This document shows, piece by piece, positions 6,082-62,238 of a stretch of DNA of 64,000 bases (positions within the stretch are counted from its first letter, which is position 1; every line of letters begins with the position of its first letter). A model generated the notes under the pieces. The model was not told the origin of the DNA and ran no database searches. It saw only the letters and a list, made by a program, of their open reading frames with translations. The position numbers were made by a program, and so were the translations under genes. This DNA is from Chiridota heheva. Taxonomy: Eukaryota; Echinodermata; Holothuroidea; Apodida; Chiridotidae. The DNA lies in the NCBI GenBank assembly GCA_020152595.1, contig JAIGNY010001587.1, positions 3,030,001 through 3,094,000 of the forward strand, in the 5' to 3' direction.

Positions 6082-6192
6082 ATCCATGTCGTCCCAACCC
6101 ATGCAAACAAGAAGGGGCCTGTTTCGTTGATGTCACCGGAGATGCTTTCTGTGTCTGTCCTGCCGAGTTCACAGGTCAACGATGCGAGGAAG
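6082..6192 (+). CDS. Exon: EGF-like domain 1
   Basis: The exon encodes 37 residues starting DPCRPNPC and ending GQRCEE. Six cysteines have EGF spacing (C-x4-C-x5-C-x9-C-x-C-x8-C), with the usual Gly-x-x-Cys end. The acceptor follows a T-rich tract ending ttggcag; the donor is gtatga. Both borders are phase 1, the classic symmetric EGF exon. The O-fucose consensus seen in the next three EGFs is absent here, because Ala stands before Cys3. This is the first recognisable exon of the gene; no start codon or signal peptide exon was found upstream. Confidence 0.92.

Positions 6193-62238: not shown

What the first reader, a model, noticed from the sequence alone, without database searches (positions are those of the whole stretch)
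6082..62238. A gene joining Notch-like EGFs, mucin-like stalks and duplicated Ly6/uPAR domains
Eleven phase-1 exons on one strand read through without a stop as EGF x4, S/T/P linker, Ly6, linker, Ly6, linker. Ly6 domains are usually found alone or in Ly6-only arrays (uPAR), and EGFs in other mosaics. I know of no described family with this order. Alternating stalk and Ly6 units suggest the array continues past 62238.
Basis: partly seen in the sequence, partly recalled or inferred. Interest (0 to 1): 0.85.

Follow-up and report, generated by a model that had tools for sequence, protein, structure and literature searches.

The report
Giant receptor kinase with Ly6-domain array
An animal gene, of which this window holds only the front part, appears to encode a very large cell-surface receptor whose outer part strings four EGF and eleven Ly6-type domains on mucin-like stalks and whose inner part is a tyrosine-kinase-like domain, a combination not met in the papers looked at here.

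Summary
In detail: four EGF exons, stalk exons and two Ly6 (LU) domains lie on one strand in phase 1 at the stated places. The 64-kb window shows only the front of the gene. In the same assembly (window = C1581:3030001-3094000) nine more LU domains follow, eleven in all, then a fibronectin-III exon, a transmembrane exon and exons of a tyrosine-kinase domain. Forty exons from EGF1 to the kinase hinge join into 4,021 codons without a stop. The best single-domain kinase matches in the PDB are Tie-2, then FGFRs. So the likeliest reading is a receptor tyrosine kinase (or pseudokinase) with ectodomain EGFx4, stalked LUx11, FN3. Open: the catalytic-loop/DFG exon, the first exon and the last exon were not found (5 kb of N lie just upstream), some kinase splice sites are weak, and no transcript shows EGF4 spliced to stalk 1. 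A second LU array in the genome carries Fz-like and perhaps FN3-like exons.

The parts
6082..6192 (+). EGF1 exon, phase 1-1
   Evidence: PF00008 26.1 bits, cut-off 21.5; acceptor 13.8, donor 7.9
18083..18196 (+). EGF2 exon, phase 1-1
   Evidence: PF00008 43.9 bits; also found in the own-genome EGF search at E 1.1e-7
39246..39359 (+). EGF3 exon, phase 1-1
   Evidence: PF00008 37.6 bits; splice sites
40780..40893 (+). EGF4 exon, phase 1-1
   Evidence: PF00008 31.2 bits; splice sites
46758..47018 (+). stalk 1 exon, 42% S/T/P, no Cys
   Evidence: no Pfam match
52162..52287 (+). LU1 first exon (Cys 1-5)
   Evidence: joined LU1: PF17064 22.9 bits, under the cut-off 27.3
55342..55539 (+). LU1 second exon (Cys 6-10, ends C-x-C-x4-CN)
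57755..57868 (+). stalk 2 exon, probable (acceptor score only 2.4, donor 9.8)
   Evidence: 35% S/T/P
58020..58136 (+). LU2 first exon
   Evidence: joined LU2: PF17064 27.7 bits, over the cut-off
61305..61496 (+). LU2 second exon
61966..62238 (+). stalk 3 exon, 34% S/T/P, no Cys (acceptor weak, 2.1)

Best explanation
One + strand gene of at least 172 kb (6082 to +178878) encodes a single-pass (type I) receptor with a tyrosine-kinase-like cytoplasmic domain. Its ectodomain is EGFx4, then eleven LU (Ly6/QVR-type three-finger) domains, nine of whose ten gaps hold a Cys-free, S/T/P-enriched, often repetitive stalk, then one FN3 domain next to the membrane. Inferred mechanism: the stalks, probably O-glycosylated, hold EGF and LU beads far from the membrane; ligands or neighbouring-cell proteins bind EGF or LU beads; clustering brings the cytoplasmic domains together, to signal by phosphorylation if the catalytic exon exists, or as a pseudokinase scaffold if it does not. 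Shown by sequence: the domains, their order, one strand, compatible phases. Inferred: splicing of EGF4 to stalk 1 and of the TM exon to the kinase, an N-terminal signal peptide, glycosylation, ligand binding and signalling.
For: Eleven LUa/LUb exon pairs in order from 52176 to +149170; ten Cys plus the final CN invariant in all eleven; QVR is the best Pfam hit for 10 of 10 joined LUs tested (LU5 was not run), 2 of 10 over the cut-off. FN3 exon at +150213-150491, PF00041 25.4 bits, cut-off 25. TM exon at +158743. Kinase exons at +162165, 163123, 164648, 174197, 174661, 176539, 178773; PF07714 129.8 bits, cut-off 23.1, with 32 X for the missing segment; best single-domain PDB match Tie-2, 102.9 bits. 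40 exons = 4,021 codons, no stop; five C-lobe and tail exons also join in frame. EGF4 to LU1: no signal-peptide exon; the scan of the two gaps returned only stalk 1 and LU1a; 7 acceptor-led frames, none with a TM stretch. LU3b/LU4b: pN 0.048, pS 0.162; LU3b/LU5b: 0.054, 0.118.
Against: No transcript. No start exon found (5,000 N directly upstream of the window) and no last exon: the tail exon +181147-181266 has a good donor (10.4) and what follows was not identified. The catalytic-loop/DFG/activation-loop segment (about PF07714 positions 120-167) was not found in the 9.4-kb intron. Several kinase splice sites are weak: N-lobe acceptor 1.4, alpha-G donor 2.0, activation-segment donor 3.6, TM-exon donor 4.2; a better donor 4 bases on (5.7) is in the wrong phase for the N-lobe exon. 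The TM exon can also be read into a stop (...GAKGVGVL*), so a form without a kinase is possible. Choosing open phase-1 exons makes stop-free joining partly circular. No second EGF-LU or LU-kinase gene was seen: the other LU array (C706) has Fz-like exons and gave no hit to the kinase or FN3-TM queries. LU4 against LU5 is too similar to show constraint (pN 0.016, pS 0.028). Stalk S/T/P content (27-42%) is lower than in classical mucins (recalled).
Confidence: 0.65

Rival explanations
1. Two neighbouring genes: a small EGF protein ending after EGF4 and, from stalk 1 or LU1 on, a separate LU-array receptor.
For: Phase 1-1 is usual for secreted modules (recalled), so phase alone cannot join them; introns between EGF exons are 11.9, 21.0 and 1.4 kb and EGF4 is 5.9 kb from stalk 1; no EGF exon was seen in the 33 kb (10 kb of it N) read of the C706 LU array.
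Against: No signal-peptide exon with a phase-1 donor between 40894 and 52161 and no TM frame there; stalk 1 is like the inter-LU stalks in make-up. A phase-1 scan of -95 to -5 kb gave 4 candidates, the two best of them ECM29-like and the other two not looked at, and 0 to 6.1 kb gave EGF1 alone, so no other part of an EGF gene was recognised; the 5-kb N run is unread.
Confidence: 0.18
2. The LU-array gene ends right after the TM helix (stop in the TM exon); the kinase exons downstream are another gene or a remnant.
For: An in-frame stop follows four codons after the possible phase-0 donor, whose score is only 4.2, and the N-lobe acceptor scores 1.4; the kinase lacks its catalytic exon.
Against: The kinase exons start 3.2 kb downstream on the same strand with a phase-0 start that fits that donor; no signal-peptide exon was found between them; the first one carries juxtamembrane-like sequence before the N-lobe.
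Confidence: 0.15
3. A decaying gene or assembly error: an old receptor kinase that lost its catalytic exon and perhaps its start, or a gene broken by mis-assembly in repeats.
For: Catalytic segment missing; tandem repeats and a DIRS-like retroelement (by eye) fill that intron; Asn replaces the usual Asp in KSN-VW (motif recalled); a 5-kb N run upstream.
Against: No stop or frame break in the 45 exons joined; ten Cys conserved in eleven LUs; LU3b/LU4b pN 0.048 against pS 0.162. If the missing piece is simply skipped, 164838 to 174197 stays in frame.
Confidence: 0.12

Closest known systems
Tie-2 / Tie family receptor tyrosine kinases
   Same: Best full-span single-domain PDB match of the kinase (102.9 bits); ectodomain with EGF repeats and membrane-near FN3 (Tie architecture recalled).
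   Different: Tie has Ig domains, three EGFs and three FN3s (recalled); here no Ig exon was noticed (none was searched for), and there are four EGFs, one FN3 and eleven LUs. FGFR1 scores almost as well (100.7 bits), so Tie membership is not claimed.
TGF-beta / activin receptor kinases
   Same: Three-finger (LU) ectodomain plus TM plus kinase (stated in PMC11595613, passages read).
   Different: Those have one LU and a Ser/Thr kinase (recalled); here eleven LUs, EGFs, stalks, and a kinase whose best matches are tyrosine kinases. Activin_recp scored 12.1 bits on LU7, cut-off 20.9.
uPAR and QVR/Quiver-type Ly6 proteins
   Same: LU domains with 10 Cys and a final CN; QVR is the best Pfam family. 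Repeated LUs as in uPAR (recalled).
   Different: uPAR has three LUs and a GPI anchor (recalled); here eleven LUs in a TM protein with EGF, FN3 and kinase.
LU-domain genes of the starfish Asterias rubens (PMC11595613)
   Same: Invertebrate LU repertoire that includes LUs on receptors (2 GPCR-like, 2 activin-receptor-like of 48; passages read).
   Different: At most two LUs per protein in that survey; the terms EGF and tyrosine kinase occur 0 times in its main text (its supplementary table was not seen).
Second LU array of the same genome (C706:821867-944207, minus strand)
   Same: QVR-type LU exons (22.7 bits, under the cut-off), phase 1 where read, matching this array at 28-37% identity; an FN3-like exon follows by eye, not confirmed by Pfam.
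   Different: Fz-like exon upstream (25.2 bits, cut-off 32.1) and a weaker Fz-like stretch downstream (13.9 bits); no EGF seen in the parts read and no kinase hit.

Membership tests
Receptor tyrosine kinase | single TM helix between ectodomain and kinase | tested here: met
   TM exon +158743-158915 (hydropathy 2.74 over 19 residues) with kinase exons after it in a compatible frame; the splice itself is inferred
Receptor tyrosine kinase | kinase domain of tyrosine type | tested here: met
   PF07714 129.8 bits; PDB best single-domain hits are Tie-2 and FGFRs
Receptor tyrosine kinase | catalytic loop (HRD) and DFG motifs | tested here: not met
   not found between 164839 and 174196; loss in assembly is not excluded, so catalytic activity is not claimed
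Receptor tyrosine kinase | N-lobe ATP-site lysine and alpha-C glutamate | tested here: inconclusive
   VVVK and QAELTAL present; glycine loop RGKFSDVF keeps one of three glycines; motif definitions recalled
Tie family | Ig domains with EGFx3 and FN3x3 ectodomain (recalled) | tested here: inconclusive
   phase-1 exon scan shows EGFx4, LUx11, FN3x1 and stalks; no dedicated Ig search was run and weak exons can be missed
LU (Ly6/uPAR, QVR) | 10 conserved Cys, final Cys followed by Asn | tested here: met
   invariant in 11 of 11
LU (Ly6/uPAR, QVR) | Pfam QVR score over the cut-off 27.3 | tested here: inconclusive
   2 of 10 joined LUs over (LU2 27.7, LU9 28.2), the other 8 at 20.4-26.1; LU5 not run
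LU (Ly6/uPAR, QVR) | three-finger fold | not tested
EGF | six-Cys EGF over the Pfam cut-off | tested here: met
   4 of 4
Mucin-type stalk | S/T/P-rich, repetitive, O-glycosylated | tested here: inconclusive
   nine separate stalk exons 27-42% S/T/P, none with Cys; glycosylation not testable
TGF-beta receptor kinase | Ser/Thr kinase with one LU | tested here: not met
   tyrosine-type kinase and eleven LUs

The most novel reading that the evidence does not exclude
A lineage-specific receptor class in which a growing LU array is joined to interchangeable N-terminal recognition modules (EGFx4 here, Fz in the C706 paralogue) and, in this member, to a Tie/FGFR-like kinase that has lost its catalytic segment, so that it signals as a pseudokinase; recent LU4/LU5 duplication and repeat growth in the stalks would make the ectodomain vary between individuals, as expected of a recognition or immune receptor.
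Probability: 0.12. Interest if true: 0.82.

Novelty: new variant of a known kind. Interest (0 to 1): 0.62.

Why it matters
LU domains are mostly single GPI-anchored modules (PMC11595613, passages), and three-finger ectodomains on kinases are known from the Ser/Thr TGF-beta receptors. A tyrosine-kinase-type receptor carrying eleven LUs on stalks would be a separate route to a three-finger kinase receptor and a clear case of ectodomain shuffling. It gives a concrete gene in which to ask what an LU array senses, whether its kinase is active or a pseudokinase, and whether array length varies between individuals.

Tried and rejected
Whole-domain QVR search of the genome gave 0 matches (5 candidates scored), I think because each LU is split by an intron; a 1,035-aa query of 9 of the 11 LUs plus the TM exon worked instead. 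Further EGFs within 100 kb either side, and to about +200 kb: none accepted; regex hits at +88.8-89.4 kb are a CVCSTSG tandem repeat and one - strand hit at about -20.6 kb does not look like an EGF. Juxtamembrane exon at +159025: open for 19 codons, no donor seen by eye, rejected. Organism: COX1 search of the assembly gave nothing, so no phylum is claimed. Relatives of the LU second-exon alignment in viral contigs: 39 pattern matches, none confirmed. LU2 against PDB sequences: 2 hits at E 0.72 and 0.92. The family-wide kinase search reported 151 matches (147 of 760 candidates scored; not all rows listed); this locus is not among the rows shown, so it says nothing for or against the missing exon. 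Structure prediction was not used, see Membership tests. Papers: ten searches, rows seen of papers found: 6 of 6; 0; 1 of 1; 15 of 26; 15 of 64; 8 of 8; 15 of 68; 10 of 15; 10 of 16; 1 of 1. By title and abstract start none of these rows describes LU domains on a tyrosine-kinase receptor or an EGF-LU mosaic. I read passages of PMC8662651 (12 of 18 places; Ly6, uPAR and three-finger occur 0 times), PMC3058042, PMC13409769 and PMC11595613 (12 of 15 places, plus abstract and outline), none in full. The library is open-access only, and no eukaryote sequence database could be searched.

Full report
What was checked. The window is C1581:3030001-3094000 of an unnamed 1.1-Gb eukaryote assembly. 100 kb upstream (L009-L018) and 140 kb downstream (L019-L032) were read. 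Positions beyond the window are given as window coordinate with '+' (C1581 position minus 3,030,000).

The window part. All four EGFs pass Pfam's cut-off. The LUs match the Quiver-type Ly6 family PF17064, LU2 over its cut-off and LU1 under it. The acceptors of stalks 2 and 3 are weak (2.4 and 2.1).

The array continues. LUa/LUb exon pairs follow with first exons at +71056, 75038, 79592, 86124, 91790, 97009, 118725, 126102 and 147421, giving eleven LUs up to +149198. All eleven keep ten cysteines and the terminal CN. QVR is the best Pfam family for 10 of 10 LUs run, 2 of 10 over the cut-off; LU5, nearly identical to LU4, was not run. Further stalk exons lie at about +73575-74132, 78061-78687, 83669-85960, inside the second LU6 exon (to 88163), 93512-93871, 115629-117407 and 123021-123155. 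So stalk 1 precedes LU1 and nine of the ten gaps between LUs hold a stalk; none was found between LU10 and LU11. The nine separate stalk exons have 27-42% S+T+P and no Cys. LU4 and LU5 with their stalks are a recent tandem duplication (95.7% and 93.2% identity in the two longest aligned pieces). LU3b shows pN 0.048 and pS 0.162 against LU4b, and 0.054 and 0.118 against LU5b; LU4 and LU5 themselves are too alike to tell (0.016 and 0.028). This is a small sample that fits coding constraint.

The other end. At +150213-150491 lies an FN3 exon (PF00041 25.4 bits, cut-off 25). At +158743-158915 lies a TM exon with a basic cytoplasmic start. Then come kinase exons: N-lobe +162165-162375, alpha-C 163123-163221, hinge to alpha-E 164648-164838, end of the activation segment 174197-174267, alpha-F 174661-174701, alpha-G 176539-176635, alpha-H/I 178773-178878, and a tail exon at 181147-181266 that ends in a good donor, so the last exon is not identified. 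Some of their splice sites are weak (N-lobe acceptor 1.4, alpha-G donor 2.0, activation donor 3.6, alpha-F acceptor 3.9, TM donor 4.2). Together they match PF07714 at 129.8 bits. In the PDB the top row is an EGFR chain that matches twice; the best single-domain matches are Tie-2 (102.9 bits, residues 10-267 of the query) and then FGFR1, 2 and 4 (60 of 751 matches shown). So it is a tyrosine-type kinase near the Tie/FGFR side, not assigned to a family.

Missing pieces. The segment that should hold HRD and DFG (PF07714 about 120-167) was not found in the intron +164839-174196 by motif search, phase-0 exon listing, reading the open frames of 164839-167600 and 173300-174200 or a 27-residue profile: best 21.75 there, 28.75 elsewhere in 304 kb (profile typed from recall). 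That intron holds tandem repeats and, by eye, a DIRS-like retroelement, so loss in assembly is as possible as true loss. Skipping it keeps the frame. No start exon was found: candidates at about -46 and -42 kb are not convincing, and 5,000 N lie at -4999..0.

Is it one gene? The 40 exons from EGF1 to the hinge give 4,021 codons without a stop. Open phase-1 exons were chosen, so this is partly by construction; the junctions from the TM exon into the kinase were not searched as phase 1 and also fit. The - strand of 304 kb gave no phase-1 exon over score 17, against 30 on the + strand from 0 to 203 kb, all in the model. Between EGF4 and LU1 only stalk 1 was found, with no signal-peptide exon and no TM stretch among 7 acceptor-led frames; such frames with a TM-like stretch do occur 7 times in 0-150 kb. 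The upstream neighbour is an ECM29-like proteasome-adapter gene on the same strand (PF23731 32.2 bits, cut-off 27, from exons at -67402 to -65807), so no other home for the EGF exons was recognised. Transcripts are needed to settle it.

A relative in the genome. The LU query finds one other array, on C706 minus strand, 821867-944207. The parts read (33 kb in four loci, 10 kb of it N) show LU exons, a Fz-like exon upstream (25.2 bits, cut-off 32.1), a weaker Fz-like stretch downstream (13.9 bits) and, by eye, an FN3-like exon that Pfam did not confirm. No EGF match by the same regex. The kinase and FN3-TM queries do not hit C706. It shows that an LU array can lie next to other N-terminal modules in this animal, and it does not repeat the EGF or the kinase.

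Mechanism. Shown: order, strand, phases, domains. Inferred: a long stalked receptor whose EGF/LU beads meet a ligand and whose cytoplasmic domain signals, either by phosphorylation or as a pseudokinase. The LU domains could bind proteins in cis or trans as other three-finger proteins do (an integrin is the suggested target of starfish Lystar5: PMC11595613, abstract).

Novelty. Tyrosine-kinase receptors, LU domains and LU-on-kinase (TGF-beta receptors) are all known kinds. The combination found here was not seen in the rows listed by ten searches of an open-access library (several lists were cut) or in the passages read of a starfish survey of 48 LU proteins, where two LUs was the most per protein. 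It may still be annotated, unnoticed, in eukaryote databases that could not be searched. I therefore call it a new variant of a known kind.

Noticed in passing
window 29689-34431: 42-bp tandem repeat, 114 copies, 92% matches, open on the minus strand for long stretches.
   Followed up: no
window 47762-51363: 65-bp satellite array (about 13 + 42 copies, 95-96% matches) in the intron just before LU1.
   Followed up: no
window 23574-24951: 14-bp minisatellite, 99 copies, which gives long open frames in three frames.
   Followed up: no
window 6684-8000 and 14024-14509 (minus): Retroelement-like fragments by eye (RNase-H-like and reverse-transcriptase-like translations) in the intron after EGF1; similar pieces recur downstream at about +63951-67645 and +132-134 kb.
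   Followed up: no
C1581 about +167900 to +172700 (L029): DIRS-like retroelement (reverse transcriptase and recombinase-like frames, judged by eye) in the kinase intron where the catalytic exon is missing.
   Followed up: partly
C1581 window -72727 to -65807 (L011-L012): Exons of an ECM29-like proteasome adapter on the + strand upstream (PF23731 32.2 bits); HEAT-like exons at +183109 and +189155 look similar by eye but had no Pfam match at E 0.01.
   Followed up: partly
C706:821867-944207 minus strand (L033-L036): Second LU array with Fz-like exons on both sides and perhaps an FN3-like exon: another unusual mosaic.
   Followed up: partly
window -4999..0 (end of L018): 5,000 N directly before the window start, gap or withheld; the missing first exon may lie there.
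   Followed up: no
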